This document shows positions 2,542 to 21,246 of a stretch of DNA of 21,355 nt, in pieces. A program made the translations under genes and the position numbers. Origin of the DNA: Cyanobacteria bacterium UBA11153 (lineage in GTDB: Bacteria; Cyanobacteriota; Cyanobacteriia; Cyanobacteriales; Coleofasciculaceae). The stretch covers positions 1-21,355 of the forward strand of contig DOIX01000160.1 of the NCBI GenBank assembly GCA_003511885.1. The letters are read 5' to 3'. The notes under the pieces were generated by a model. It did no database searches and had not been told where the DNA came from. It saw nothing but the letters and a program-made list of their open reading frames with translations. Position 1 is the stretch's first letter. Every line of letters starts with the position of its first letter.

Positions 2542-4890
2542 CTAAACTCCTAGTTTATTGATGGCAACCTGAATGGTATCGGCTTGGTTGTATCCCCCTT
2601 GTTTCAGGTTATTGTAATGACTTTCCAGCAGAGTAATATCTTGAGGTTTCCAAGTGACTTGGCTAGTAACTTCAGCTATTTTATCGGCTAAGTCTTTTTG
2701 TAAGCCTTTTAAGTCGTTAGATACTGTCCAGATACTGAGAAAGAGTTCGAGTGTTTTTTGGCCGTCTTCGTATTTGACTTGAGTGGGAGTTTCTTGAGGA
2801 TAGCCTAGCCATTGGAGGAGAGTTTTTACTTCATCTGTGCCGCCACCTAGGAAATAGGTGAAAAATCGCCACTCTTCCAAGTCTGATTGATTTCGTTGGT
2901 AGATGTTATTAAGGACAATAACATCCTCTTGAGTTTCTAGTTTTCTGATTTTACCTAAAACTTCTGCGGCACGCATACGAATATATTTATCAACCTTTTC
3001 ATCTGTGAGTAAGCTGAGGATATCTGGGACGTATTTAGCACCAACTTCTCCTAATTTAATCAAAGCATATGCGGCACTGTCACGAACATCTGAATTAACT
3101 TTGTCATCTTTGAGGAAGTTGAGGATATCGGGGACATATTTAGCACCAGCTTCTCCTAAATTACCCACGGCATATGCGGCATTGCTACGAATATATGGAT
3201 TGACCTTTTCTTCTGTGAGAAAGTTGAGGATATCCGGGACGTATTTACCACCTGCGTCTCCTAAATTATCCAAAGCTTCTGCAACACTGACACGAATATT
3301 TGGCTCAACCTTGTCATCTTTGAGGAAGTTGAGGATATCGGGGACGTATTTAGCACCTGCTTTTCCTAATTTAATCAAAGCATATGCGGCACTGCTACGA
3401 ACATATGAATTAACCTTGTCATCGAGGAGAATGTTGGCGATATCGGGGGCGTATTTAGCACCTGCTTCTCCTAATTCACCCAAAGCTTCTGCGGCACCCC
3501 TACGAATATTTAGATCAACCTTTTCATCCGTGAGAAAGTTGAGGATATCGGGGGCGTATTTAGCACCTGCTTCTCCTAAAATTCCTAAAGCTAATGCGGC
3601 ACTGCTACGAACACCTGGATCAACCTTTTCATCAGAGAGAATGTTAAGGATATCGGGGGCGTATTTAGCACCTGCTTCTCCTAATTTACCCAAAGAATAT
3701 GCGGCAATGCTACGAACACCTGGATCGACCTTTTCATCAGAGAGAATGTTAAGGATATCGGGGGCGTATTTAGCACCTGCTTCTCCTAAATTACCCAAAG
3801 AATATGCGGCACTTCTACGAACACCTGGATAGACCTTTTCATCGGAGAGAATGTTAAGGATATTGGGGGCGTATTTAGCACCTGCTTCTCCTAAATTATC
3901 CAAAGCTAATGCGACACCCATACGAATACCTTGAGCAATCTTTTCATCTGTGAGTAAGTTGAGGATATCGGGAACGTATTTAGCGCCTGCTTCTCCTAAT
4001 CTACTCAAAGCAGATGCGGCACTGCTACGAATATCTGGAGCAATCTTTTCATCTGTGAGGATGTTGGCGATATCGGGGGCATATTTAGCACCTGCTTCTC
4101 CTAAATTACCCAAAGCGTATGCGGCAATGCTACGAACACCTGGATCAACCTTTTCATCTTTGAAAAAGTTGAGGATATCGGGGGCGTATTTAGCACCTGC
4201 TTCTCCTAATTTAATCAAAGCACCTGCGGCACGCATACGAATATATGGCTTAACCTTTTCATCTTTGAGGAAGTTGAGGATATCGGGGGCGTATTTAGCA
4301 CCTGCTTCTCCTAATTTACCCAAAGCAAATGCGGCATTGCGACGAATATATGGGTCAACCTTTTCATCGGAGAGGATATTAACAGCTTTCAGGGCAATAT
4401 CTTCCGGTTTCTTCAGCACCAATTTCAACTCTTGCGCATCATATTGGGCTAATTGCCAAAAAGCAACACTTTTCACTTTAAGATAACTATCATCAATAGC
4501 CGCAACTATCCCATCAATTTGCCAATCTTGGGGTGCGTATTTAGCACCTGCTTCTCCTAAATTAACAAAACCAGGTATGGCAAAGCTAAGAAAAACTGGC
4601 TCAACCTTTTCATCTTTGAGGAAGTTTAAGGCTTTCCGGGCAATATCCTCCGGTTTCTTCAGGACCGCTTTTAAATCTTGCGCTTCATATTCTGCTAATT
4701 TATCGAAAGCATATTCCTTCACTTGAGGATAACTATCATCAAGTGCCGCCACTATCCCATCAATTTGCCAAGGTGTAGGCTTAGGCGGTAGTGTAGCACT
4801 CACCCAAGGGAGAGAGAGGAAGAGGGTGAGACAGAGGGTAAGGGGGAAGAGGATGAGGGGTTTTCTGATTTTATAGATAAGTTTGAGCAT
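2542..4890 (-). CDS. secreted or anchored HEAT-like repeat protein
   Basis: The 782-residue protein starts with a basic N-terminus and a hydrophobic stretch (about residues 12-33, ending WVSA), which looks like a signal peptide or membrane anchor. Residues 34-193 hold two diverged units with PWQIDGIVAAL/DDSY and LKKPEDIA motifs. Residues 194-648 are thirteen consecutive 35-residue repeats of the form GEAGAKYAPDILNFL, DEKV, P-x-(I/V)R, AAxALxxL, without indels. Such HEAT-like helical repeats usually form protein-binding solenoids. Residues 649-782 are a separate C-terminal domain with EEWRFFTYFLGGG and LLQWLGYPQ motifs that I cannot assign. The start is supported by a GGGAG-containing leader. 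Its function is unknown; a periplasmic or membrane-attached scaffold is an inference. Confidence 0.85.
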   Translation of the reverse strand: MLKLIYKIRKPLILFPLTLCLTLFLSLPWVSATLPPKPTPWQIDGIVAALDDSYPQVKEYAFDKLAEYEAQDLKAVLKKPEDIARKALNFLKDEKVEPVFLSFAIPGFVNLGEAGAKYAPQDWQIDGIVAAIDDSYLKVKSVAFWQLAQYDAQELKLVLKKPEDIALKAVNILSDEKVDPYIRRNAAFALGKLGEAGAKYAPDILNFLKDEKVKPYIRMRAAGALIKLGEAGAKYAPDILNFFKDEKVDPGVRSIAAYALGNLGEAGAKYAPDIANILTDEKIAPDIRSSAASALSRLGEAGAKYVPDILNLLTDEKIAQGIRMGVALALDNLGEAGAKYAPNILNILSDEKVYPGVRRSAAYSLGNLGEAGAKYAPDILNILSDEKVDPGVRSIAAYSLGKLGEAGAKYAPDILNILSDEKVDPGVRSSAALALGILGEAGAKYAPDILNFLTDEKVDLNIRRGAAEALGELGEAGAKYAPDIANILLDDKVNSYVRSSAAYALIKLGKAGAKYVPDILNFLKDDKVEPNIRVSVAEALDNLGDAGGKYVPDILNFLTEEKVNPYIRSNAAYAVGNLGEAGAKYVPDILNFLKDDKVNSDVRDSAAYALIKLGEVGAKYVPDILSLLTDEKVDKYIRMRAAEVLGKIRKLETQEDVIVLNNIYQRNQSDLEEWRFFTYFLGGGTDEVKTLLQWLGYPQETPTQVKYEDGQKTLELFLSIWTVSNDLKGLQKDLADKIAEVTSQVTWKPQDITLLESHYNNLKQGGYNQADTIQVAINKLGV
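2947..4311 (-). repeat. 13 in-frame 105-bp coding repeats of the HEAT array
   Basis: The 1365-bp block encodes the thirteen 35-residue HEAT-like units with exact 105-bp periodicity. The units are highly similar at DNA level, and the segment around TATCGGGGGCGTATTTAGCA recurs nearly unchanged. Three neighbouring units at 3577-3891 (sharing NILSDEKV and PGVR) are the most alike and look like the youngest duplications. The array can vary in length by recombination without shifting frame. It is also a place where short-read assemblies collapse. Confidence 0.9.
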
Positions 4891-5021: not shown

Positions 5022-5528
5022 CTAATGTTTATTAGTTTCTTCTTCCTTCTGTAACTCTTTTGTGGCTGTAAATTCTCCTCCTGGTATGTTGTTGAGACTT
5101 ATTTTACCTGCGATGGTGTCTCCTTGAATAATTCCTTGGATTTTTACCAAGTTATGATTTCCGGATTTAGATGATTCATCGCAATTAGTCAGCCATGGTA
5201 CTTTTCCTGTTAAACTAATTTCTCGATTAATAAATTGTCCGCTAAGAGACGGGTTATTTTCTATAGATGTTGTTGTCTTTTTATGGGTATCTCCAGAAAG
5301 TAATGTACCATTGATATAAACTCCAGATTGTAGAAGGTTTAATCCTAGGGATTCTGATTTGAGACAGTCTGGTAAGTTTTCGCTACTGATGGGATAGTAA
5401 CCATCAATGGGAGGATTTGCTTTGAGATTGGTATTGCCGTAAGCTGTGACAATTTTAAATAATACTACCACTGAGCTGATGGCCGTACCATAAAACAAGA
5501 GAGATTTGAGACTAAAATGACTGCTCAT
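5022..5528 (-). CDS. small membrane-anchored or exported protein coupled to the antiporter
   Basis: The 168-residue product has one hydrophobic segment at about residues 9-29 followed by a polar domain. That fits an N-terminal anchor or uncleaved signal with the rest outside the cytoplasm. Two cysteines (C55 in PDCLKS, C116 in TNCDES) could form a disulfide there. Its ATG overlaps the antiporter stop codon in an ATGA arrangement (5525-5528), so the two are very likely co-transcribed and translationally coupled. The GYYPISSENLPDCL and GVYINGTLLSGD segments do not match a family I can name. An accessory or regulatory subunit of the antiporter is a reasonable inference from the coupling only. 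Confidence 0.75.
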   Translation of the reverse strand: MSSHFSLKSLLFYGTAISSVVVLFKIVTAYGNTNLKANPPIDGYYPISSENLPDCLKSESLGLNLLQSGVYINGTLLSGDTHKKTTTSIENNPSLSGQFINREISLTGKVPWLTNCDESSKSGNHNLVKIQGIIQGDTIAGKISLNNIPGGEFTATKELQKEEETNKH

Positions 5529-7717
5529 AAGGTAACTCCTGATTCATCTTTTGTCAGAGAAAGGATTGAAGTGAGGTGAGATGTAACTTGTGAATATCTG
5601 CGAGTAATTAGCAAAGAAGAAGAACATTCAATCGCTAATCTATCGGTATATCTTCCCAAGGTTTGCCGTTCAATTCCCCAGGCGCGACTAGTACCAGCAA
5701 TGGTAAGATCTACATGTTCTGATTTAGCAACTACAGCTTGGATGGGATCGAGTGCTTCTACTACTTCTATGGTAATGCGATCGCGGATTTTTTGTGGTAA
5801 TTGTCCCATTAAGGTGCGAAACTCGTAGCTGAATTCTTTGCCAATTTCCTCCCCTTGCACTACCCTAAAAACTATTAAGCTTCCCGTATTGTCATCCACC
5901 ATTAATCTGAGGGCAAGTTCCAATCCTAAATCGTCATGGCTATTGCCTGAATAAGGTACTAAAATTTTACTAATTCTCTCCTTGCCTCGATCTACAAATA
6001 CGGCAACATCTGTCTGGGCTGTACTGAGAATTTGGCCTACTCTTCCTCCCAAACGATTAGTACTAAAAGCGGGACGATGCCATCCCATTAAGATAAGGTT
6101 AGCTCCATCTATTTGAGCGATTTCTATTGTTGTTCTGGCTACATCGTTAGCAATCCGCACGATGGGATGTACTATTTGTCTGGCTTCTGGCGGTTCCAAA
6201 CTTTGAATTAATTCTTCTAAATGATAACGCCTTTCTTGAATTAATCTTTCTGCTTCAATTGGCGTACTTTCAAACATATAGTTTTCCTCCAATTCAATTA
6301 AACTGAGAGGATGAACTATCGCCGTTTGGAGAGAATTTCCCGCCAGAGATACCGCCAATTTCAATAATCCTTTCTGGCTATTAGGATTGGCAACTGGGAC
6401 TAAAATACGATAGCTTGGGTGAAGAATACCTCTATCGGTTTCTGTGGCAGTTTCTGGTTCTAAAATATCCAACTTAATCAGATTTTTGGGATAAGTCCAT
6501 TCCAGTAGAGGTGAAGTCATGACAGTGGTAACCAGTGCCATAATCACCAACATAGTGAATAGTAAGGGAGAAATCACGCCTAAACTCAAACCAATATTAA
6601 GGACAATTAGTTCAGTTAATCCTCGCGTATTCATTAACCAACCTAAAGCTGAAGCCTCTCTATTATTAATCCCGCAAACACGTGCAGCCACATAAGTCCC
6701 AACGTACTTACCAATAATCGCTACTGCCACAACTAGCCCACATAGTAACCATAATTCAGGACTATTGAGTAAGCCAATTTGGGTGCGAATACCGCTATAA
6801 GCAAAAAATACAGGCAGCAAAACACTGAGAACAAAATCTTCAGTTTTTTCAGCTAATTCACGGACTAGATTTGGATTTTTGGGCATAACAGCACCAATCA
6901 GAAAAGCCCCAAAAATTAGGTGAATTCCGATTAATTCAGTAATTAAAGCTGAAGCGATTACACCCATGTAAATACTTGTCACTACCACCTGACTTAACCT
7001 TTCTGTGCGGTTGTAGTGCGCTGATAATTTTTGCAGAAACCATCGCCCTAATGTCATCATCAATGCGATGTATAATAGAGCTTCACCAACCGTAAAAATA
7101 ACACCTGTCATCGAGTTGGTAGCAGCAGGTGAAGCATTAGCTTTACCCACAGCAATTGCCAAGGCTAACAAACACCAAGCCGTCACATCATCTACCGCAG
7201 CACAAGTAAGTGCCAAAGTCCCTAATCTAGTACCCTGTAAGTTATTTTCTGTAATAATTCTAGCCAGTACCGGAAAAGCCGTAATCGACATCGCCGCACC
7301 TAAAAATAGGGCAAAAGCCGTAAAAGATACCGCCGAATTAGAAACAAGAGGATATAATAATAAAGCCAGGATACTCCCTAATGAAAAAGGAACTAAAATA
7401 CTGACATGGGAAGTAAGAATCGCAATATCCAAATTACCTTTAAGATATTTGGGATCCAACTCTAACCCAATCAGAAACATGAAAAAAATTAATCCAATCT
7501 CCGAAAGAACTTCCAAAAACGGTATCGTAGTAGCAGGGAATAAAGCCGCAGCCAAATCTGGCGCAATCAAACCCAACAGCGAAGGACCAAGCATAATCCC
7601 AGCAATAATCTCCCCAATCACCAAAGGTTGTTTGATGAGTTTGCACCCCAAACCCATAATCCGGGAGAGTCCAATAATGATAAGTACTTGAAGGAGAACT
7701 AATATCGCAGCGTGCAT
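5525..7717 (-). CDS. CPA2-family cation:proton antiporter with two C-terminal USP domains
   Basis: Residues 1-410 form a CPA2 Na+(K+)/H+ exchanger domain with about twelve membrane helices. It includes the LVIGEIIAGIMLGPSLLG motif near residue 32, AFPVLARIITE at 148-157, the paired aspartates D176-D177 in AAVDDVTAW, which are the expected ion-binding site, and NTRGLTELIVLNIG at 363-376. The DVTAW and NTRG signatures resemble plant CHX exchangers and cyanobacterial relatives. Residues about 435-575 and 580-710 are two tandem universal-stress-protein-like domains, each starting with (I/K)ILVP, which probably sense nucleotides or other cytosolic signals and control transport. The start ATG at 7717 has an AGGGA sequence a few bases upstream. 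It is the first gene of a two-gene operon. Confidence 0.93.
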   Translation of the reverse strand: MHAAILVLLQVLIIIGLSRIMGLGCKLIKQPLVIGEIIAGIMLGPSLLGLIAPDLAAALFPATTIPFLEVLSEIGLIFFMFLIGLELDPKYLKGNLDIAILTSHVSILVPFSLGSILALLLYPLVSNSAVSFTAFALFLGAAMSITAFPVLARIITENNLQGTRLGTLALTCAAVDDVTAWCLLALAIAVGKANASPAATNSMTGVIFTVGEALLYIALMMTLGRWFLQKLSAHYNRTERLSQVVVTSIYMGVIASALITELIGIHLIFGAFLIGAVMPKNPNLVRELAEKTEDFVLSVLLPVFFAYSGIRTQIGLLNSPELWLLCGLVVAVAIIGKYVGTYVAARVCGINNREASALGWLMNTRGLTELIVLNIGLSLGVISPLLFTMLVIMALVTTVMTSPLLEWTYPKNLIKLDILEPETATETDRGILHPSYRILVPVANPNSQKGLLKLAVSLAGNSLQTAIVHPLSLIELEENYMFESTPIEAERLIQERRYHLEELIQSLEPPEARQIVHPIVRIANDVARTTIEIAQIDGANLILMGWHRPAFSTNRLGGRVGQILSTAQTDVAVFVDRGKERISKILVPYSGNSHDDLGLELALRLMVDDNTGSLIVFRVVQGEEIGKEFSYEFRTLMGQLPQKIRDRITIEVVEALDPIQAVVAKSEHVDLTIAGTSRAWGIERQTLGRYTDRLAIECSSSLLITRRYSQVTSHLTSILSLTKDESGVTL

Positions 7718-13643: not shown

Positions 13644-15008
13644 TTAGCTGCGATGGTAGGAATCTTTGAACTTCCTTTCTATTTTACCAGTTATAGCTGC
13701 GAAAACGATCGCCAATCCAGCACCAGACACAGCCACGATTTCCCGCCACTCCCCGTCTGTAACTATGGCTAAAGCGAAAAGTGCGATCGCTACTCCCACA
13801 CCAGTATATTTTAATCGGTTTGTTATCTGATATGCGCGATGGCAAGAACTACAAATTACTGTGTGTTGCGAGAATCTATCTGACTCTACCGACTGTGGTA
13901 TGTACTCGCCATTACTCATATTTTTTGTCGTATTATAGCCCTGATAATATGGTAATGATGCCCCAAAATTATCCAACCATTTGCGGTACTCAGTCACCAA
14001 AACATCTGATGTTTTCAAAGGCAAAAATATTTCTTGCAGGCTTTTACCCAAACGTGCAATTTCTGTCTGTTGTCCCAAGATTAGAGGTAAATCTTCTTCC
14101 AATACTCGGTTTTGACGTAAATGTTCTAACCAGCGAGGTTTCAGTTTCATTTGCCCAGTAAAAAAGTTCCGATATCTTCTGAGAATAACGCGGGATCTAC
14201 CTCGCCCCAGTGGAACTGTATACAACGCCAATCCCGCTAACCAATCTGGCTTGGCAAAACTAAGTCTATAATGAACTAAATTAGGCGCAATAAAATCAAG
14301 GCGTTGGTAGCGTCCATTAACTTTTAACATGCCCCGAAATTTCCCGCGAATTCCCATCGCACAACTTTCCAGTACTTCTATTTCCAGGGGTTGGGCATCT
14401 TGGCGATTCGCTTCACTGCCATCGTGACTAATATAAACATGAGCCGGATCGATAAAGTTTTCTATCAAATAGTTTTGATCGTAAGGAAGTTCGCGGATAT
14501 AGTCTGTGCTAACAAATGCTGGATTGTCTAACTCTGGTATAATGGGAATTAGTCGCTCGTCAGCCTTTTTCGCTTCACCTATCCACAGCCAAATCATCCC
14601 TTGGCGTTGGACAACTGGAAAGGATTCTACACAAGCATTAACCGGAATTTTGGCATCTGGAGCTAACTGAGGAATGTGGAGACATTCCCCATTAATTCCA
14701 AACTGCCATCCGTGGTATAAACACTCAATTTTACCATCAATGATTTGTCCGTCTGAGAGTTTTGCCGCACGGTGCGGACAACGATTGGTTAAACAAATTA
14801 GTGTTCCTGTTTCATTTCTGAATAAAACTAATGGTTCCTCATACAATGAAAAACTATAAGGTTTATTTTTGGGTAAATCTTGGACAAAACAGATGGGATA
14901 CCAGCAAGAGCGATAGTGGAAGGTTTGGTCAGTTTCAGGTGTTACCTCGGTGGTAGTTGTTTCTCTTGGGGTTGGAGTTTCATCGGATATGTAGGTAGGT
15001 ACTGTCAT
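13644..15008 (-). CDS. PaO/Tic55-like Rieske non-heme iron oxygenase, copy 1
   Basis: From the ATG at 15008 (454 residues), the Rieske [2Fe-2S] ligands are C77-x-H79 and C96-x2-H99. The mononuclear iron site follows as E183-x3-D187-x2-H190-x4-H195 in ENFIDPAHVYISH. A PaO-type C-terminal region contains EYRKWLDNFGASLP. The CxxC motif ICSSC is at 386-389, and two membrane helices lie at about 402-418 and 424-442. This layout matches the PaO/Tic55/PTC52/ACD1 group, which oxygenates tetrapyrroles in plants. The Rieske cluster takes electrons from ferredoxin; the CxxC may be thioredoxin-controlled. An in-frame TTG at 15059 would add 17 residues, but ATG alignment with the paralogue favours 15008. 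The physiological substrate is not known. Confidence 0.9.
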   Translation of the reverse strand: MTVPTYISDETPTPRETTTTEVTPETDQTFHYRSCWYPICFVQDLPKNKPYSFSLYEEPLVLFRNETGTLICLTNRCPHRAAKLSDGQIIDGKIECLYHGWQFGINGECLHIPQLAPDAKIPVNACVESFPVVQRQGMIWLWIGEAKKADERLIPIIPELDNPAFVSTDYIRELPYDQNYLIENFIDPAHVYISHDGSEANRQDAQPLEIEVLESCAMGIRGKFRGMLKVNGRYQRLDFIAPNLVHYRLSFAKPDWLAGLALYTVPLGRGRSRVILRRYRNFFTGQMKLKPRWLEHLRQNRVLEEDLPLILGQQTEIARLGKSLQEIFLPLKTSDVLVTEYRKWLDNFGASLPYYQGYNTTKNMSNGEYIPQSVESDRFSQHTVICSSCHRAYQITNRLKYTGVGVAIALFALAIVTDGEWREIVAVSGAGLAIVFAAITGKIERKFKDSYHRS

Positions 15009-15328
15009 GAATATTTTTGCGTGAATATGTTGATATAGGGAGATTAAACGAGCCAGCAATGCTAACTGTTGTCACTAATTTTATATATTTAAGCACCGCT
15101 ATATCCACTGATCGAGTGAAGAATGCTAAAGTTATGTGAAGAAATCTGCCACCACTTTTGCCGCAATCATTGTGGATTATGCTTGCTAAATTTAATAGAT
15201 TTCTCGAAGATCCTTCTACCCTGACATATCGTTTAACAGAGACGATGTGGTATGGTGTGAGATTATGTCCGCTACTATCGGACATAATCTCAGTGGTAAA
15301 TTAAATCATCAGTTTATTGTACAGTGCC
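15009..15328. promoter_or_regulatory. divergent promoter region between Rieske copy 1 and the P450
   Basis: This 320-bp gap separates two oppositely transcribed genes, so it should hold both promoters. I see no clear -10/-35 pairs. It contains the direct repeat GTGAAGAA at 15116-15123 and 15136-15143 (20 bp apart, about two helical turns) and the strong inverted repeat described separately. No good Shine-Dalgarno sequence precedes either start. Confidence 0.55.
15258..15292. promoter_or_regulatory. perfect 14-bp inverted repeat, candidate operator or hairpin
   Basis: TGAGATTATGTCCG (15258-15271) and its exact reverse complement CGGACATAATCTCA (15279-15292) flank a 7-nt spacer, CTACTAT. The site ends 36 bp before the P450 ATG. 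The length and perfection are far beyond chance in a 320-bp gap. There is no T run after it, so a factor-independent terminator is unlikely. It may be the binding site of a dimeric regulator acting on the P450 and perhaps on the divergent Rieske gene, or an RNA hairpin in the P450 leader. Confidence 0.65.
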
Positions 15329-16675
15329 ATGTTGCGATCGCAAGAACAAATTCCACAAGCCTCGACAGCACCCCATTGCTTCCAGAAGATGCAATGGATT
15401 ACTAACCCTCTGGCTTACATGGAGGCTGCTAGCCAAGAATGTGGTGACATTTTCAAAGCACCAATCATTGGTAAATATCCCTACGTGTTACTAGTCAGCC
15501 ATCCCCAAGCACTACAGGAAATTTTTGCTAATCATCATCAGTTTATATCTCCGCCCAATCCCCTAGTTCAACCTATTGTCGGAGATTATTCTTTATTTGT
15601 ACTAGAAGGGGAACGTCATCGACGGGAACGAAAACTTTTAATGCCATCTTTTCACGGGGAACGCATACTTGCTTATGGGCAACTCATTAGCAATCTCACC
15701 GAAAAGGTAATGACACAATTGCACCCAGGACAAGTTTTTACTGCCCGCGACTTAATCCAGGAAATTTCTCTAGAAGTCATCCTCCAAGCAGTTTTTGGTA
15801 TTCATTCAGGGGAAAGATTTAATGAACTTAAACAAGAAATTATTACCTTAACAGATGGATTTCGCTCTCCCTTAAAATCAGGTGCGCTTTTCTTTCCATC
15901 ACTCCAGAAAGATTTAGGTGCTTGGAGTCCTTGGGGATCTTTTCTCCGGAATAAGGGGCGAATTAGCCAATTGTTATTAGCTGAAATTCAGGAACGGAGA
16001 CAAGAAGGCAATCCTACTCGTTCAGATATTCTTTCTCTACTTTTAGAGACTAAGGATGAGTCAGGAGAAGGGATGACAGATGAACAATTACGAGATGAGT
16101 TGATTACCCTATTATTAGCTGGGCAAGAAACTACTGCTACTGCCATATCTTGGGGATTATATTGGATATATAAATTGCCAGAAGTCCGAGATAAACTGCA
16201 CCAAGAATTGGCATCTCTGGGGGATAAAGCGACACCTATGGAGATAGTTAGCTTACCCTATCTTACAGCAGTTTGTCAGGAAACTTTACGGATTTATCCG
16301 GTGGCGATTTTAACAGTACCTAGAGAAGTCAAAGAACCTGTAGAATTAATGGGTTATCAGTTAGAAATAGGTACGAGAATTTATGGCTGTATTTACTTAA
16401 CCCATCATCGCCCAGATTTATACCCTCAACCCAAACAATTTAAACCAGAGCGATTTTTAGATCGTCAGTTTACTCCCTATCAATTCTTGCCTTTTGGTGG
16501 TGGAATCCGTCGCTGTTTGGGTGAAGCTTTGGCGCTATTTGAAATGAAGTTAGTTTTAGCTAAAATTGTCTTCAACTATCAATTAACCTTAGCAGATAAG
16601 CAACCAGAATATCCCCAGCGACGAGGAGTGACTTTGGCACCTGCTAGAGGTGTGAGAATGATGATGCAAGGTTAG
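15329..16675 (+). CDS. cytochrome P450, CYP110-like
   Basis: From the ATG at 15329 (448 residues), the I-helix oxygen-activation motif is AGQETT at about 264-269, and the ExxR pair is ETLR at 318-321. PERF follows at 373-376, and the heme-binding loop FGGGIRRCLGEA has the axial cysteine C396. The length is normal for a soluble bacterial P450, and no N-terminal membrane anchor is seen. Motifs and overall sequence resemble the cyanobacterial CYP110 family, members of which hydroxylate fatty acids or terpenes; the subfamily call is from memory and not tested. An in-frame TTG at 15317 could add four residues. No redox partner gene is nearby, so ferredoxin from photosynthesis or general pools probably donates electrons. 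It converges on Rieske copy 2. Confidence 0.93.
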   Translation: MLRSQEQIPQASTAPHCFQKMQWITNPLAYMEAASQECGDIFKAPIIGKYPYVLLVSHPQALQEIFANHHQFISPPNPLVQPIVGDYSLFVLEGERHRRERKLLMPSFHGERILAYGQLISNLTEKVMTQLHPGQVFTARDLIQEISLEVILQAVFGIHSGERFNELKQEIITLTDGFRSPLKSGALFFPSLQKDLGAWSPWGSFLRNKGRISQLLLAEIQERRQEGNPTRSDILSLLLETKDESGEGMTDEQLRDELITLLLAGQETTATAISWGLYWIYKLPEVRDKLHQELASLGDKATPMEIVSLPYLTAVCQETLRIYPVAILTVPREVKEPVELMGYQLEIGTRIYGCIYLTHHRPDLYPQPKQFKPERFLDRQFTPYQFLPFGGGIRRCLGEALALFEMKLVLAKIVFNYQLTLADKQPEYPQRRGVTLAPARGVRMMMQG

Positions 16676-16757
16676 TCAGCCAAAATAGCAATCTTCATGG
16701 ACGACCATGCTCATAAATACCAGACTTATTCCTGTTTGTTCTCAAAGTATTTCTCTC

Positions 16758-18092
16758 TCATAAATAATCCTCAAATTTAGTTTTAATTCGATCGGCTAAC
16801 ACTGCGGTAATAACTGCTACCATCGCACCGGAAACTGCCGCTATTTCTAGCCAAAAAGGATCGGTAAGTATCGCTAAAGCTAATAGTGCGATCGCAATTC
16901 CTACACAGGCTTGTTTTACTTGCTTTGTCGCCCGATAAGCTCCCTGACAAGAGTTACAGAATTCTGTGTGCCGAAAATATGGTTTTATTTGGACATCTCG
17001 CGATTCATCTGTATTTTTCCCTCCTTTTGAGGTAGAATACCCGCGATAAAATGGCAAAGAAGCTCCATATCTATCTAGCCACTTACGATACTCAATGGCA
17101 AAGGTATCGCAAGTAGGAATCGGTGTATAAATTTCTTTGATATTTTGTCCCAATCTTTCAACTTCTGCCTCTTGCCCTAAGAGGATTGATACATCTTGGG
17201 CGACAATATTATTTTGTTTTAAATGAATCCACCATCTTGGCGTTAGTTTAACTTGCCAAGTCACAAAATTACGATAGCTGCGGGTGAGAATTCGGCATTT
17301 TCCTTTACTAAGTGGGAAGAAATAAAATGCTTGCCCAAAAAACCAACCTCGATCTGAAATGGGAAAGTGTAAATGGGCTAGACTAGGAGCGATAAAATCA
17401 AGATATCTCCAGGTTTGATTGGGTAGTTTTGTGTCGCGAAACCTACCACGAAATCCCTCAATTGAACTTTCAATCACTTCCATTTCTAAGGGTTGAGCTT
17501 TTTTGCGATTACCCTGATAACCATGATGGGTGATGTGAATATGAGCCGGATCTAACATGTGTTCTATCACATAGCCGATGTCGCAAGGCAATTCGGTTAT
17601 TTTATCTGAATAGACAAATCCCGGCTCATCTAACTTAGGAATAGTGGGGATGCGATTGCTATCAGCTAATTCTGCTGCACCTGCCCACATCCAAATCATT
17701 CCTTGAAGTTCGATAACTTTAAAGGATTTGACGCAGGCATTATGAGGCATTTTGGCATCAGTTGGTAATTGGGGAATATGGAGACATTCTCCTTCACTTC
17801 CAAACTGCCATCCATGGTACAAACATTCAATTTTTCCATCAATTATCTGCCCGTCGGATAGTTTGGCTGCACGGTGGGGACAACGATCCGTTAAACAGAC
17901 TAACTGCCCATTTTGGTTTCTGAATACAATGAAAGGTTCATCGTATATCGAAAAATTATAATGGCGGTTTTTCGGTAAGTCTTGCACAAAACAAACAGGA
18001 TACCAACATTCCCTCCAGTTAAATTCTCGATTCTCTTTAGGTGCGATTTTGGTTTCTATTGATCTTGCTTCGATCTGGGTATCTAATATCAT
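16758..18092 (-). CDS. PaO/Tic55-like Rieske non-heme iron oxygenase, copy 2
   Basis: The 444-residue protein is a paralogue of the copy at 13644-15008 and keeps every functional residue. These are the Rieske ligands C71/H73 and C90/H93, the iron site E177-x3-D181-x2-H184-x4-H189 (EHMLDPAHIHITH), EYRKWLDRYGASLP in the PaO-type C-terminal region, CxxC at 379-382 (FCNSC), and two membrane helices at about 394-412 and 417-435. A 29-residue stretch around the Rieske cluster is identical in the two proteins, yet their DNA there differs at a dozen or more, mostly synonymous, positions. So both are old and under purifying selection. The iron-site surroundings differ (HIHITHHG versus VYISHDG), suggesting different substrates or steps. 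It follows the 46-codon gene by 88 bp with a hairpin between. Confidence 0.92.
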   Translation of the reverse strand: MILDTQIEARSIETKIAPKENREFNWRECWYPVCFVQDLPKNRHYNFSIYDEPFIVFRNQNGQLVCLTDRCPHRAAKLSDGQIIDGKIECLYHGWQFGSEGECLHIPQLPTDAKMPHNACVKSFKVIELQGMIWMWAGAAELADSNRIPTIPKLDEPGFVYSDKITELPCDIGYVIEHMLDPAHIHITHHGYQGNRKKAQPLEMEVIESSIEGFRGRFRDTKLPNQTWRYLDFIAPSLAHLHFPISDRGWFFGQAFYFFPLSKGKCRILTRSYRNFVTWQVKLTPRWWIHLKQNNIVAQDVSILLGQEAEVERLGQNIKEIYTPIPTCDTFAIEYRKWLDRYGASLPFYRGYSTSKGGKNTDESRDVQIKPYFRHTEFCNSCQGAYRATKQVKQACVGIAIALLALAILTDPFWLEIAAVSGAMVAVITAVLADRIKTKFEDYL

Positions 18093-18135
18093 ATTATTTT
18101 CCTAATTTACTGATTATTCGCTAGTTTAATTTATT

Positions 18136-18172
18136 AATCTAAGGTGGTAGCTTAGTCCTACGACCTTAGATT
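18136..18172. terminator. stable hairpin between the small gene and Rieske copy 2
   Basis: AATCTAAGGT (18136-18145) pairs with ACCTTAGATT (18163-18172), and inside this GTAG pairs with CTAC around a 7-nt loop, with one G-G mismatch between the two stems. On the minus strand the hairpin starts 8 nt past the stop of the small gene and is followed by AATAAATTAAAC rather than a clear U tract. It may attenuate or process the transcript ahead of Rieske copy 2, or be an operator. On the plus strand it is followed by TTTT-like sequence (ATTTTGACTTCTT), a weak terminator for that strand. Confidence 0.5.
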
Positions 18173-18180
18173 TTGACTTC

Positions 18181-18321
18181 TTAATCTTCTCGGTGAAATA
18201 CTTCCGAAATAAACATGGCAAAAGCACCATAATTATCAGATTTTTCTGTGATTCGCTTATACTCATTAGTTGTCAGGTTGCCAAATAATTTTTCCCAGTG
18301 TTGTTCTTGGAGATTGGTCAT
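18181..18321 (-). CDS. 46-residue small protein, unrecognised
   Basis: ATG at 18321 opens a 46-codon frame ending in TAA at 18181-18183. It starts MTNLQEQHWEKLFGNLT and ends AMFISEVFHRED. The product is soluble, charged and probably helical, with one tryptophan, no cysteine and no signal peptide or membrane helix. The start lies only 5 bp past the stop of the DUF3598-like gene, a spacing typical of an operon, which is the main reason to accept it. Its context among tailoring enzymes allows a small partner protein or, less likely, a ribosomal peptide precursor; a classic Nif11-type leader and Gly-Gly cleavage site are absent. Function is unknown. Confidence 0.6.
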   Translation of the reverse strand: MTNLQEQHWEKLFGNLTTNEYKRITEKSDNYGAFAMFISEVFHRED

Positions 18322-18326
18322 GTTCT

Positions 18327-18821
18327 TTACTTAACTCTCTCTTCTTTGATGACTAAAAATCCTTGTAATGTACCTGTTTCTGTGAAAATGGTAGCTGTCC
18401 GAATCCGTTTATTTTCACCCATAAAGGTTATGGTTTCTATTTCCCTAGGCATACCTGTTGCTCTATTAATGACTTTAAATGTAATGATATTATCCTCTTG
18501 TTCTAAAGCTGTTAGTTGGTAGTCTTTGAATCTGGGATTTTCTCCCACAACCTCTAACTTGACTTTTCCTGGACTGGTGGGGATAATATCAAAGCTCTGA
18601 CTAGCCGTTGCGCCATCTGGGTAAATATAAGTGTTAGTGAGAACCCACTTATCCACAACTTCGGCAAAAGTTTGAGCAATTTGGTAACGCTTTAACTCCT
18701 GGAGATCTCCATCCAGAAATCTTACAGTTCCCTCCCATTTGCCAACATTTTGAGGGAAGACTGTGTAGTTATTGAGTAAATTGTCTGAACTAGAGTCAAA
18801 AGTAGACATAGAGAAAATCAT
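18327..18821 (-). CDS. putative calycin/DUF3598-like beta-barrel protein
   Basis: A 164-residue soluble protein with alternating hydrophobic strands and features such as NVGKWEGTVRFLDGD near residue 24, DKWVLTNTYIYPDG near 57 and FKVINRATGMPREIETITFMGENKRIRTATIF towards the C-terminus. The WEG motif followed by many strands resembles the lipocalin-like (calycin) fold and cyanobacterial DUF3598 proteins, which can bind hydrophobic ligands or pigments. This assignment is from pattern resemblance only. The ATG at 18821 is used here; a second ATG four codons in (18809, MSTFDSS) is equally possible. It lies 5 bp ahead of the 46-codon gene and 105 bp after the membrane hydroxylase gene, all on the minus strand. 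A carrier or binding protein for the cluster's substrate would fit, as inference. Confidence 0.6.
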   Translation of the reverse strand: MIFSMSTFDSSSDNLLNNYTVFPQNVGKWEGTVRFLDGDLQELKRYQIAQTFAEVVDKWVLTNTYIYPDGATASQSFDIIPTSPGKVKLEVVGENPRFKDYQLTALEQEDNIITFKVINRATGMPREIETITFMGENKRIRTATIFTETGTLQGFLVIKEERVK

Positions 18822-18846
18822 TCTTTAACGAGATGACCATGCCATA

Positions 18847-18873
18847 AATCCTACCTCTAGATTGGTAGGAATT
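18847..18873. promoter_or_regulatory. inverted repeat TCCTACC-8-GGTAGGA between hydroxylase and DUF3598-like genes
   Basis: TCCTACC (18849-18855) and GGTAGGA (18864-18870) flank an 8-nt spacer; two further outer bases pair on each side after one mismatch. It lies 26-54 bp upstream of the DUF3598-like start on the minus strand, where an operator would sit. No T tract follows on either strand. Confidence 0.45.
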
Positions 18874-18926
18874 CAGGGGAACAGATAGACTGATGAAATC
18901 AAATAGCTTTGAATCTTGTAGGTACT

Positions 18927-19430
18927 TTACCACCACTTTAGTTGTAAATAACCCCGTTCCGCTTGAGTTGTTTCCTCTTCAGTCAGCCATTCCACTGGTT
19001 TGTAAGTACCAAAAATGCGATCCCACCAATCTACAGCTAAACCAAAATTATGATGCCACATACCATATTTGTGATGGACGTAATGTACGGGCATTTTCAT
19101 CCAGAAACATTTGGTGGGATTTTCATGCTGAAGCTGATGAGCGTAGGCAGAAAAGGCGGCGTAAACTAATCCACCGAGAAACCAACCGATGCCAGCAGTC
19201 CATGACCAGAAAAACATTAAACACATTACCACAGCGCTACCTCGCACGTAATCGCGGAATTCCCAAACCACCCCTTGTCCTTCATTGCGGCGGTGATGAT
19301 CCCGGTGACGCTCGCCAATTTTAGCATTGGCGTGCATGAGGCGATGTATCCAGTATTCGACTAAACTGGCTAGAATAAAAGCTAAAACGAAACAGCCGAT
19401 GCCGATAGCTATCCTTTCTAAGGGGGTCAT
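18927..19430 (-). CDS. short fatty acid hydroxylase/sterol desaturase superfamily membrane enzyme
   Basis: The 167-residue protein carries the histidine boxes of the di-iron membrane hydroxylase superfamily: H29-x3-H33 (HRLMH), H42-x2-H45-H46 (HRDHH), H98 and H102 region (HQLQH), H116-x2-H119-H120 (HYVHH) and H126-H127 (WHHNFG). Four hydrophobic segments surround them (about 5-25, 66-78, 80-98 and a short one near 130). Family members hydroxylate or desaturate fatty acids, sterols, carotenoids and sphingolipids at the membrane. At 167 residues it is shorter than most, close to a minimal catalytic core, but it is not missing a box. It is transcribed divergently from the GH3 gene across a 130-bp gap. 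Substrate unknown; a lipid or isoprenoid is expected. Confidence 0.87.
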   Translation of the reverse strand: MTPLERIAIGIGCFVLAFILASLVEYWIHRLMHANAKIGERHRDHHRRNEGQGVVWEFRDYVRGSAVVMCLMFFWSWTAGIGWFLGGLVYAAFSAYAHQLQHENPTKCFWMKMPVHYVHHKYGMWHHNFGLAVDWWDRIFGTYKPVEWLTEEETTQAERGYLQLKWW

Positions 19431-19560
19431 GACTAACTCTACCTCACAATTTTTCCAGTAACCATCCTGACTATTTTGACATGAGATTTAATAATTGTGT
19501 CACGGAAATAGGGGCTAAGGAATGCTGGTTTAATCGTCGTTTCATTAAATTTTGAGATAA
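19431..19560. promoter_or_regulatory. divergent intergenic region, hydroxylase and GH3 gene
   Basis: The 130-bp gap must hold both promoters. A TTGACA hexamer occurs on the plus strand (in ATTTTGACATGAG) but no matching -10 box at normal spacing was found, so I call no promoter precisely. GH3 lacks a strong Shine-Dalgarno sequence; the bases before its ATG are TTTTGAGATAA. Confidence 0.4.
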
Positions 19561-21246
19561 ATGCCAAATTATTTGTTACCGCTATTGACAACTGTCGCCA
19601 GATATGCAAAATCAAGTTTTGTCAAGAAAACCTGCAATACTGAGGCCGTACAGGAAAAGTTTCTCTTCAAGCTTTTACGGGATCATCAGGATACGGAAAT
19701 TGGTCGTCTATATGGGCTAAGGGATATCAAGACTATCGAGCAATTTCGCGATCGCGTCCCGATTTTACCTTACAGTAGTTACGAACCCTATACCAATCGT
19801 ATTTTCCAAGGCGAATCTAATATTCTGACTCCCGATCCTGTAGTTTATCTCAATCTTACTAGTGGTTCTACAGGGGCGAAAAAACTGATTCCTGTTACCA
19901 AAAGATTTCAGAATTCCTTGAGACGGGCAAATCTGGCAAGTATGGGATTTTTAGCGGATGCTTTAAGTAAGCAAAAACGCAAGTTTGGGAAGTTACTCTT
20001 AACTAATTCTGTTCAATTATTGGGACGAACCCCTGGAGGGATTGAATATGGTGCCGCGAGTGTGGGGGTACTGCGGATGGGGAAGTTTCTCTACGAGCAA
20101 ATTTTTGCTAATCCTTTTGAAACCCTATTGCCTCATGATAGCCTCAGTCGTCATTATGTTTGTTTACTATTTGCTTTGCGCGATCCTTATATGCGGGGAA
20201 TAATTGCTAACTTTCCCATGTTAATTTTGCGGATATGTGACTATTTGGAAAGATATGGGGAAGAATTGATTCGAGATTTAGGGAAAGGAACTATTGCTAG
20301 TTGGCTAGATTTGGAGCCAGAAGTTATGGCACAATTAGAAAGTCAATTGATTCCTAACCCTACCAGGGCTAATGAATTAAAGATAATTTTAAATCAGTCA
20401 GGAAGGTTGACACCGAAACTAGTTTGGCCTCATTTATCTTTTGTTGCTACTGCCAGAGGTGGAACTTCTGATTTCTATTTTCAGCGTTTTCCTGGTTATT
20501 TTGAGGATACGCCTGTATTTGGCGCTGTTTATTCTTCTGCTGAAGCCACTTTTAGTATTTATCCAGATGTCGATACTGATGGTAGCATTTTAGCAATTGA
20601 AACTGGATTTTTTGAGTTTATTCCCGAAGATAGATGGGAAGATGAACATCCCCAAACTATCCTAGCTACTGAAGTAAAAGTGGGACAATGTTATCGCTTA
20701 CTCACTACAAATTATAGTGGCTTTTATCGTTACGATATTGGCGATGTGGTGGAAGTAGTAGGATTTTACAATACAGCCCCCCTAATTGTTTTCCGCTATC
20801 GACGCGGCGGGACACTCTCTGCCACAACAGAAAAAACAACAGAGTATCATGTAACTCAGATATTTCAGGCTTTACAGGAAGAATTTGGGATCTTTTTAGA
20901 AGATTTCTGCGTTACCCTATCTGAAAATATTGTGGAACCATACTATCTGATTAACATTGAATTACGTCGGGGTCAAAAGTTAGACAATCCGGAATTATTT
21001 TTGGCTAGTTTTGAGGATAAATTAAAGGAAGCAAATACATCATATTCAGTAAAAAGACCAGATAATTATATTTCTGCACCTCGCTTACGGATTTTAGCAG
21101 AGGGAAGTTTTGCGATCCTGCGTCAGCGTCAGTTAGCCAAGGGGGTTCCCGATTCTCAGTTGAAGTTTCCTCATATTAGTGAAGATCGGGATTTTTTGGC
21201 GGGGTTGGTGGTTGAGAAAGAAGTCAGGATGAGATATAGCAGTTGA
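19561..21246 (+). CDS. GH3-family acyl-adenylating amide synthetase
   Basis: GH3 enzymes activate a carboxylic acid with ATP and transfer it to an amine or amino acid. The plant members JAR1 and GH3.x conjugate jasmonate or auxin. The 561-residue length fits. ATP-binding motif 1 is LNLTSGSTGAKKLIPVT (97-113). Motif 2 is around VYSSAEATFSIYP (323-335). Motif 3 is TTNYSGFYRYDIGDVV (382-397). The hinge and C-terminal domain begin near RGGTLSATTEKTTE (415-428). All three nucleotide-binding motifs look intact. Plant numbering cannot be used to infer acyl specificity in a bacterial member. The stop codon overlaps an STRR-like heptamer repeat. Beside four oxidative enzymes it would act last, on a carboxylate they create or leave free; this is inference. 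Confidence 0.9.
   Translation: MPNYLLPLLTTVARYAKSSFVKKTCNTEAVQEKFLFKLLRDHQDTEIGRLYGLRDIKTIEQFRDRVPILPYSSYEPYTNRIFQGESNILTPDPVVYLNLTSGSTGAKKLIPVTKRFQNSLRRANLASMGFLADALSKQKRKFGKLLLTNSVQLLGRTPGGIEYGAASVGVLRMGKFLYEQIFANPFETLLPHDSLSRHYVCLLFALRDPYMRGIIANFPMLILRICDYLERYGEELIRDLGKGTIASWLDLEPEVMAQLESQLIPNPTRANELKIILNQSGRLTPKLVWPHLSFVATARGGTSDFYFQRFPGYFEDTPVFGAVYSSAEATFSIYPDVDTDGSILAIETGFFEFIPEDRWEDEHPQTILATEVKVGQCYRLLTTNYSGFYRYDIGDVVEVVGFYNTAPLIVFRYRRGGTLSATTEKTTEYHVTQIFQALQEEFGIFLEDFCVTLSENIVEPYYLINIELRRGQKLDNPELFLASFEDKLKEANTSYSVKRPDNYISAPRLRILAEGSFAILRQRQLAKGVPDSQLKFPHISEDRDFLAGLVVEKEVRMRYSS

What the first reader, a model, noticed from the sequence alone, without database searches (positions are those of the whole stretch)
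13644..21246. Possible undescribed oxidation-plus-conjugation pathway: two PaO-type Rieske enzymes, a P450, a di-iron hydroxylase and a GH3 synthetase
Seen: seven adjacent genes, four of them oxygenases of three unrelated iron chemistries, plus an ATP-dependent acyl-amide synthetase, a putative ligand-binding barrel and a 46-residue small gene. Known: CYP110 members and the fatty acid hydroxylase superfamily act on lipids or terpenes, and GH3 enzymes conjugate oxidised acids such as jasmonate to amino acids. Inferred: a hydrophobic acid is oxidised in several steps, then conjugated, giving an oxylipin-amide-like or terpenoid-amide product. There is no backbone enzyme, so standard cluster-finding rules that require PKS, NRPS or terpene cores would overlook it.
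Basis: partly seen in the sequence, partly recalled or inferred. Interest (0 to 1): 0.75.

Follow-up and report, generated by a model that had tools for sequence, protein, structure and literature searches.

The report
Cyanobacterial hydroxylase–GH3 lipid gene pair
Two of the seven genes, a lipid hydroxylase and an amide-forming GH3 enzyme, are a conserved cyanobacterial pair that travels with genes resembling those bacteria use to build ceramides, while the other oxygenases beside them look like unrelated neighbours.

Summary
The genes are there, but evidence is against one pathway. In 119 genomes of the order, the hydroxylase (FAH) and GH3 are a conserved pair: every one of 35 GH3 genomes has FAH, within 15 kb in 23. 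The two PaO-type Rieske genes and the P450 do not go with it: 0 of 15 Rieske loci examined elsewhere carry FAH, GH3 or this P450, and Limnofasciculus baicalensis, same genus, has DUF3598–FAH–GH3 without the Rieske genes. The 46-residue "small gene" is a remnant of a DUF3598 gene.

Backbone-type enzymes exist elsewhere. FAH tracks an alpha-oxoamine synthase (c8) and an acyltransferase (c9, homologue of E. coli YghO, a ceramide-pathway enzyme) nearly genome for genome (41 and 42 of 42 FAH genomes). GH3, an Mpo1-like protein and an amidohydrolase form nested subsets. In one genome nine such genes are contiguous.

Best reading: FAH and GH3 hydroxylate and amidate a long-chain lipid in a ceramide-like pathway. 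Substrates are unproven; c8 does not group with known serine palmitoyltransferases. A 2022 paper calls the genetic basis of cyanobacterial sphingolipids unreported.

The parts
18927..19430 (-). FAH: fatty acid hydroxylase / sterol desaturase family protein, 167 aa; one half of the conserved pair
   Evidence: PF04116 5e-15; ten histidines invariant in 33 relatives; present in 42 of 119 order genomes at 68% identity or more
19431..19560 (.). 130-base intergenic region between the divergent FAH and GH3 genes
   Evidence: gap 130; first part reads closely alike in L. baicalensis L003 (by eye)
19561..21246 (+). GH3: ATP-dependent acyl-amide synthetase family protein, 561 aa; other half of the pair
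   Evidence: PF03321, PF23571, PF23572; nearest solved chains are plant GH3.12 and JAR1; 35 of 119 order genomes at 50% identity or more
18327..18821 (-). DUF3598_N lipocalin-like barrel protein, 164 aa; next to FAH here and in L. baicalensis only
   Evidence: barrel model and PDB matches; 79% homologue beside FAH in L003; homologues in 9 other order genomes, none on the contig of FAH
18181..18321 (-). Remnant of a full-length DUF3598 gene (the '46-residue small gene')
   Evidence: two-piece match to the ends of the 276-aa protein L127:12616-13446
16758..18092 (-). RieB, PaO-type Rieske oxygenase; neighbouring block, probably not part of the FAH-GH3 unit
   Evidence: distribution and neighbours
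15317..16675 (+). Cytochrome P450, 452 aa; neighbouring block, probably not part of the FAH-GH3 unit
   Evidence: no homologue at the 15 Rieske loci; one 51% homologue near FAH in G065
13644..15059 (-). RieA, PaO-type Rieske oxygenase, 53% identical to RieB; neighbouring block

Best explanation
The functional unit is the divergent FAH-GH3 pair together with genes elsewhere in the genome. FAH is a membrane di-iron hydroxylase and GH3 an ATP-dependent amide-forming enzyme (both inferred from family and conserved motifs). Both act on a long-chain lipid of a ceramide-like pathway: alpha-oxoamine synthase c8 condenses an amino acid with a fatty acyl thioester, acyltransferase c9 N-acylates the product, epimerase-family protein c10 reduces the ketone, FAH and the separate Rieske enzyme c7 hydroxylate, and the MFS protein c5 may export. 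GH3 joins a free, probably hydroxylated, fatty acid to an amine; the Mpo1-like protein c3 and the amidohydrolase c2 act on hydroxy-acyl and amide groups. Shown: gene content, order, co-occurrence, nested distribution, c9 homology to YghO. Inferred: every chemical step and every substrate. The Rieske pair, P450 and DUF3598 remnant are most likely a separate neighbouring block.
For: Over the same 119 order genomes: GH3 (>=50% id) 35, FAH (>=68%) 42, c2 29, c3 29 (>=59%), c8 42, c9 43. Sets are nested: c2 = c3 inside GH3 inside FAH; FAH shares 41 of 42 with c8 and 42 of 42 with c9. FAH-c9 at family level p = 1.8e-8, and within mixed families genomes agree one by one except G096. FAH-GH3 within 15 kb in 23 of 35, FAH-c2 and FAH-c3 in 25 of 29. 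Contiguous c10-c9-c8-c7-c5-GH3-FAH-c3-c2 in L145. c9 matches E. coli YghO over nearly its length (27%, 6.9e-48), named as the acyltransferase for dihydroceramide synthesis in PMC9386255 (passages). The trio oxoamine synthase-GNAT-oxidoreductase, or the E. coli operon, surrounds c9 homologues in 3 of 5 plasmid records opened. c8's best solved relatives are serine palmitoyltransferases. c3 is Mpo1-like PF06127. FAH's nearest PDB sequence is yeast ceramide hydroxylase Scs7 (0.0067). Remnants next to partners (FAH pieces beside GH3 in G017 and G118, a GH3 piece beside FAH in G044) fit an ancestral pair.
Against: c8 sits on a long branch apart from both the BioF rows and the SPT-like rows, so it may make something else; its best models are below every curated cut-off. 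c10 resembles the E. coli ceramide-pathway epimerase only weakly (22%, 8.6e-11). FAH-c8 lie within 15 kb in only 14 of 41 genomes (9 farther on one contig, 18 on different contigs). c8 and c7 were not found in the window's own genome; an assembly gap is likely for c8 but unproven. The 68% FAH cut-off was chosen after seeing the data; at 50% FAH is in 56 genomes, 13 of them without c9 (listing). Seven FAH genomes lack an intact GH3 at 50%. The FAH structure match to Scs7 is not significant (E 1.0). GH3 scores far below the OlsH cut-off. Relatedness inflates the genome-level Fisher values.
Confidence: 0.55

Rival explanations
1. The c8/c9/FAH/GH3 genes make an exported specialised metabolite with an oxoamine-synthase core, not a ceramide; c8 uses another amino acid or acyl donor.
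For: c8 lies outside the SPT-like rows; an MFS transporter c5 stands in 10 of 20 and a B12-radical SAM protein c4 in 9 of 20 pair loci; distribution is patchy within families. Npun_R3567, the one alpha-oxoamine synthase of Nostoc punctiforme, did not make the SPT product (PMC8895605 abstract).
Against: c9 is a YghO homologue and the oxoamine synthase-GNAT-oxidoreductase trio is that of bacterial ceramide synthesis.
Confidence: 0.25
2. One seven-gene pathway: Rieske enzymes, P450 and FAH oxidise a hydrophobic acid and GH3 conjugates it.
For: The genes are adjacent here; a P450 51% identical lies near FAH in G065; several Rieske enzymes do stand with a distant FAH and GH3 in another cluster (L133-L140).
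Against: 0 of 15 other loci of this Rieske type carry FAH, GH3 or the P450; RieB and GH3 share only the window's genome among 119; same-genus L. baicalensis has DUF3598-FAH-GH3 and no RieB match at 1e-100; opposite strands for P450 and the Rieske genes; a decayed gene lies within the block.
Confidence: 0.07
3. GH3 conjugates small acids (auxin- or jasmonate-like) to amino acids, as in plants, and its tie to FAH is incidental.
For: The ten solved chains matched are plant GH3 enzymes; an amidohydrolase partner c2 recalls plant conjugate hydrolysis (analogy recalled, not tested).
Against: Every GH3 genome has FAH (35 of 35); c3 is of the 2-hydroxy fatty acid dioxygenase family; the one bacterial GH3 assay seen in the literature here used fatty acids (OlsH, PMC12493201 abstract).
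Confidence: 0.08

Closest known systems
Bacterial ceramide pathway (Spt, YghO/bCerS-type acyltransferase, epimerase/CerR) of Caulobacter and E. coli B
   Same: Oxoamine synthase, YghO-homologous acyltransferase and an epimerase-family protein together
   Different: c8 does not group with the SPT-like rows, c10 is only weakly like the E. coli epimerase, and here Rieske c7, MFS c5, FAH, GH3, Mpo1-like and amidohydrolase genes are added
OlsH, GH3-type lyso-ornithine lipid synthetase of planctomycetes (PMC12493201; abstract, section 8 and passages seen)
   Same: Bacterial GH3 family protein; OlsH joins free fatty acids to an amine using ATP
   Different: Window GH3 scores 98.9 bits against a cut-off of 620; different gene partners
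Yeast Scs7 (ceramide fatty acid hydroxylase) and Mpo1 (2-hydroxypalmitate dioxygenase)
   Same: FAH: same Pfam family, nearest PDB sequence Scs7. c3: PF06127 Mpo1-like
   Different: FAH is only 167 aa and the structural match is not significant; activities untested
Pheophorbide a oxygenase (PaO/Tic55-type) Rieske enzymes
   Same: RieA and RieB carry Rieske and PaO domains and a C-terminal CxxC (read; its meaning in PaO is recalled)
   Different: Not linked to the FAH-GH3 unit; substrate unknown; neighbours elsewhere include SnoaL-like and DUF3598 genes
Npun_R3567, putative SPT of Nostoc punctiforme (PMC8895605; abstract and passages seen)
   Same: Cyanobacterial alpha-oxoamine synthase
   Different: Described there as BioF-like; c8 is a separate lineage from the cyanobacterial BioF rows in my tree

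Membership tests
Bacterial ceramide pathway | Serine palmitoyltransferase | tested here: inconclusive
   c8: best PDB matches are SPTs but the tree puts c8 apart from SPT-like and BioF rows and no NCBIfam cut-off is reached
Bacterial ceramide pathway | YghO/bCerS-type N-acyltransferase | tested here: met
   c9 against E. coli YghO: 27% over 378 positions, 6.9e-48; also 35% to the Rubrobacter GNAT
Bacterial ceramide pathway | Ceramide reductase (epimerase family) | tested here: inconclusive
   c10: 22% to the E. coli epimerase (8.6e-11), 28% to the Aureispira one (1.6e-23); best NCBIfam model HpnA, below cut-off
Bacterial ceramide pathway | All three genes in the window's own genome | tested here: inconclusive
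   c9 present on C153; c8 not found, contig ends about 105 bases past c9; c10 not searched there
Bacterial ceramide pathway | Ceramide product | not testable with these tools
   needs lipidomics
GH3 acyl-amide synthetases | GH3 N, M and C domains | tested here: met
   all over Pfam cut-offs
GH3 acyl-amide synthetases | Conserved nucleotide-binding residues | tested here: met
   SGST...K and later motif residues invariant in 39 relatives; motif roles recalled
GH3 acyl-amide synthetases | Amide-forming activity | not testable with these tools
   needs assay
OlsH lyso-ornithine lipid synthetase | NCBIfam NF052613 equivalog cut-off | tested here: not met
   98.9 bits against 620
Fatty acid hydroxylase superfamily | PF04116 domain and histidine motifs | tested here: met
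   56.5 bits against 31; ten invariant histidines in 33 sequences
Mpo1-like proteins (partner c3) | PF06127 domain and conserved histidines | tested here: met
   50.7 bits against 24; three histidines in 24 of 24 rows
PaO-type Rieske oxygenases (RieA, RieB) | Rieske and PaO domains | tested here: met
   PF00355 and PF08417 over cut-off in both
Single seven-gene pathway | Neighbourhood conserved beyond close strains | tested here: not met

The most novel reading that the evidence does not exclude
Cyanobacteria carry an undescribed amide cycle on hydroxylated long-chain lipids: a di-iron hydroxylase makes hydroxy-acyl groups, GH3 couples them to an amine, an amidohydrolase releases them, and an Mpo1-like dioxygenase shortens the released 2-hydroxy acid. 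The same four-part kit appears twice: with the ceramide-like c8/c9 genes, and, built from distant homologues and a different amidohydrolase family, in a second cluster with two or more Rieske enzymes (complete in 3 of the 8 second-type loci fetched).
Probability: 0.3. Interest if true: 0.75.

Novelty: new variant of a known kind. Interest (0 to 1): 0.58.

Why it matters
PMC8895605 (2022; abstract and passages seen) says that only two sphingolipids had been identified in cyanobacteria and that their genetic basis had yet to be reported. The FAH/c8/c9 set names candidate genes, predicts which strains should have such lipids, and offers a compact nine-gene locus to test. It would also give bacterial GH3 enzymes a lipid role beyond ornithine lipids. 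For this window it shows that adjacency misled: most of the oxygenases look like bystanders, and the likely partners lie on other contigs.

Tried and rejected
Rejected: one seven-gene pathway; the 46-aa ORF as a small protein; DUF3598 as a general partner of FAH-GH3 (beside FAH only in L. baicalensis among loci examined); OlsH membership; 'no backbone enzyme'.

Weak or led nowhere: PDB sequence search with c9 (no match at E <= 1); Foldseek with the FAH model (best E 1.0); two c8 trees that do not settle its substrate (the first held a wrongly translated BioF row from L202, which I dropped in the second together with four of ten c8 rows); the named-genome scan gave 19 loci; homologue searches with c9 and FAH gave names but no function. 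Of ten paper searches, the nine on sphingolipids, GH3 or clusters in cyanobacteria listed no report of this gene set; one search was the YghO search. The library is limited to open PMC papers, and the phylum lists behind PMC11334938, which may already hold cyanobacterial homologues, were not seen. 10.1038/s41589-021-00948-7 is not held.
Full report
What is there. The window is one whole contig (C91, 21,355 bases) of a genome of 6.65 Mb in 437 contigs, 95.4% complete. The organism is a cyanobacterium by its named relatives; the closest is Limnofasciculus baicalensis. The same-genus genome G127 and the genome of the L. baicalensis locus L003 (G133) hold c9 at the same contig place, so I take them as one.

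The small gene is a remnant. The 46-residue ORF matches, in two pieces, the two ends of a 276-residue DUF3598 protein encoded near a PaO-type Rieske gene in another genome (L127). The 164-aa DUF3598_N protein next to it is modelled as a lipocalin- or fatty-acid-binding-type barrel.

The Rieske-P450 block does not go with the pair. RieB homologues of 41% identity or more occur in 10 of 119 order genomes. In 20 family genomes 8 reach E <= 1e-100, seven of them other than the window's own; two of the seven (G065, G042) are also in the order set, and same-genus G127 has no match. I fetched 15 such loci, ten from the order set and five more from the family set. None carries FAH, GH3 or a homologue of the window's P450, though several contigs are short. 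Among their neighbours that I looked at are SnoaL-like genes (4 of 15 loci), DUF3598 genes (2) and FAD mono-oxygenases (2). L. baicalensis has DUF3598 (79%), FAH (92%) and GH3 (83%) in the same order without these Rieske genes. Against this: in G065 a P450 51% identical to the window's stands one gene from FAH, and the P450 was not searched across genomes.

FAH-GH3 is a real pair. In the 119 genomes GH3 (50% identity or more) is in 35 and FAH (68% or more) in 42; every GH3 genome has FAH. They lie within 15 kb in 23, farther apart on one contig in 6, and on different contigs in 6. I fetched 20 of the 22 close pairs outside the window's genome: 18 are divergent, one on the same strand, one convergent, and 9 have no ORF of 70 aa or more between. 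FAH pieces beside GH3 in G017 and G118, and a GH3 piece beside FAH in G044, look like remnants of the pair.

Partners. ORFs around the pair were clustered and named by domain. In the 20 loci: amidohydrolase c2 15, Mpo1-like c3 15, MFS c5 10, B12-radical SAM c4 9, cupin 7, Rieske c7 6, alpha-oxoamine synthase c8 6, acyltransferase c9 6, epimerase c10 4. Over the 119 genomes c2 and c3 (59% or more) occupy the same 29 genomes, c8 42 and c9 43. The sets are nested: c2 = c3 inside GH3 inside FAH; c9 is the FAH set plus G096; c8 is c9 minus the window's own genome. The 68% limit for FAH was set after seeing the data, at a gap from 68 to 64%; with a 50% limit FAH is in 56 genomes by the listing, which include all 43 c9 genomes and 13 without c9. 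Relatedness inflates the genome-level Fisher values (1.7e-23 for FAH-GH3); collapsed to families FAH-c9 gives 1.8e-8, and within the ten families tabulated genomes agree one by one except G096. FAH and c8 are within 15 kb in only 14 of 41 genomes.

The own genome. It has c9 on C153 (77%), c2 and c3 on C189 and a second GH3 on C114 (68%) with no FAH in the 20 kb fetched. c8 was not found; the weaker matches are BioF-like ends of two contigs. C153 is 3,744 bases and ends about 105 bases past c9, on the side where c8 lies in L. baicalensis, so an assembly gap is likely. The Rieske search gave no c7-like match there either, and c10 was not searched.

Why ceramide-like. c9 is homologous over nearly its whole length to E. 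coli YghO (27%, 6.9e-48). PMC9386255 (passages) lists yghO with Caulobacter CC_1154 as the acyltransferase required for dihydroceramide synthesis. PMC11334938 (passages) describes Spt, bCerS and CerR as the known backbone set, often clustered. Of five plasmid records with c9 homologues that I opened, Rubrobacter and Aureispira have the oxoamine synthase-GNAT-oxidoreductase trio and E. coli the operon; Tunicatimonas and Sphingomonas show no oxoamine synthase within 6 kb. c8's best solved relatives are serine palmitoyltransferases, but a 16-row tree sets c8 on a long branch apart from both BioF and SPT-like rows. The class of chemistry is supported; the exact product is not.

A contiguous example. 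In L145 the order is c10-c9-c8-c7-c5-GH3-FAH-c3-c2.

A second, distant kit. Nine order genomes have a distant FAH and a distant GH3 side by side in the listings; I fetched eight. All eight have Rieske families c13 and c16, ferredoxin c15, AurF-like c14 (weak), FAH c17 and GH3 c18. In three of them an amidohydrolase and an Mpo1-like protein lie upstream on the same strand (Pfam run on one of the three). The Mpo1-like proteins of both kits share three histidines in 24 of 24 rows. Hydroxylase, GH3, Mpo1-like protein and amidohydrolase thus come together twice.

Mechanism and weight. OlsH, a bacterial GH3, forms N-acyl ornithine from fatty acids (PMC12493201; abstract and section 8), so amidation of a fatty acid by this GH3 is plausible, but it fails the OlsH cut-off and its substrate is unknown. 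FAH's nearest solved relative is the ceramide hydroxylase Scs7, weakly by sequence (0.0067) and not significantly by fold; the model is less certain (block means 62-76) in its second half, where part of the metal site lies.

Noticed in passing
L133-L140 (other genomes): A second cluster type with two Rieske families, ferredoxin, AurF-like and ferritin-like genes, a distant FA hydroxylase and a distant GH3.
   Followed up: partly
L213-L215: Upstream of that cluster an Amidohydro_3-type protein and an Mpo1-like protein, repeating the amidohydrolase + Mpo1 + hydroxylase + GH3 combination; an SnoaL-like gene and a family 2 glycosyltransferase lie further upstream.
   Followed up: partly
G000:C114:9477-11147 (L132): A second GH3 gene, 68% identical, in the window's genome without FAH in the 20 kb fetched; L. 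baicalensis also has two.
   Followed up: partly
G017:C53:62137-62232, G118:C14:63901-63996, G044:C284:11416-11586: Gene fragments: FAH pieces beside GH3 in two genomes and a GH3 piece beside FAH in a third, as if the pair had been broken up there.
   Followed up: no
L123, L175: PaO-type Rieske genes stand in tandem, three in L123 and two in L175, so this family expands locally.
   Followed up: partly
L122, L124, L127, L173: SnoaL-like small proteins sit next to or near PaO-type Rieske genes, a possible functional link of that family.
   Followed up: no
window 2542-4890: A 782-aa protein made largely of HEAT repeats (10 HEAT_2 stretches).
   Followed up: no
window 5525-7717: A sodium/hydrogen exchanger fused to universal stress protein domains.
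   Followed up: no
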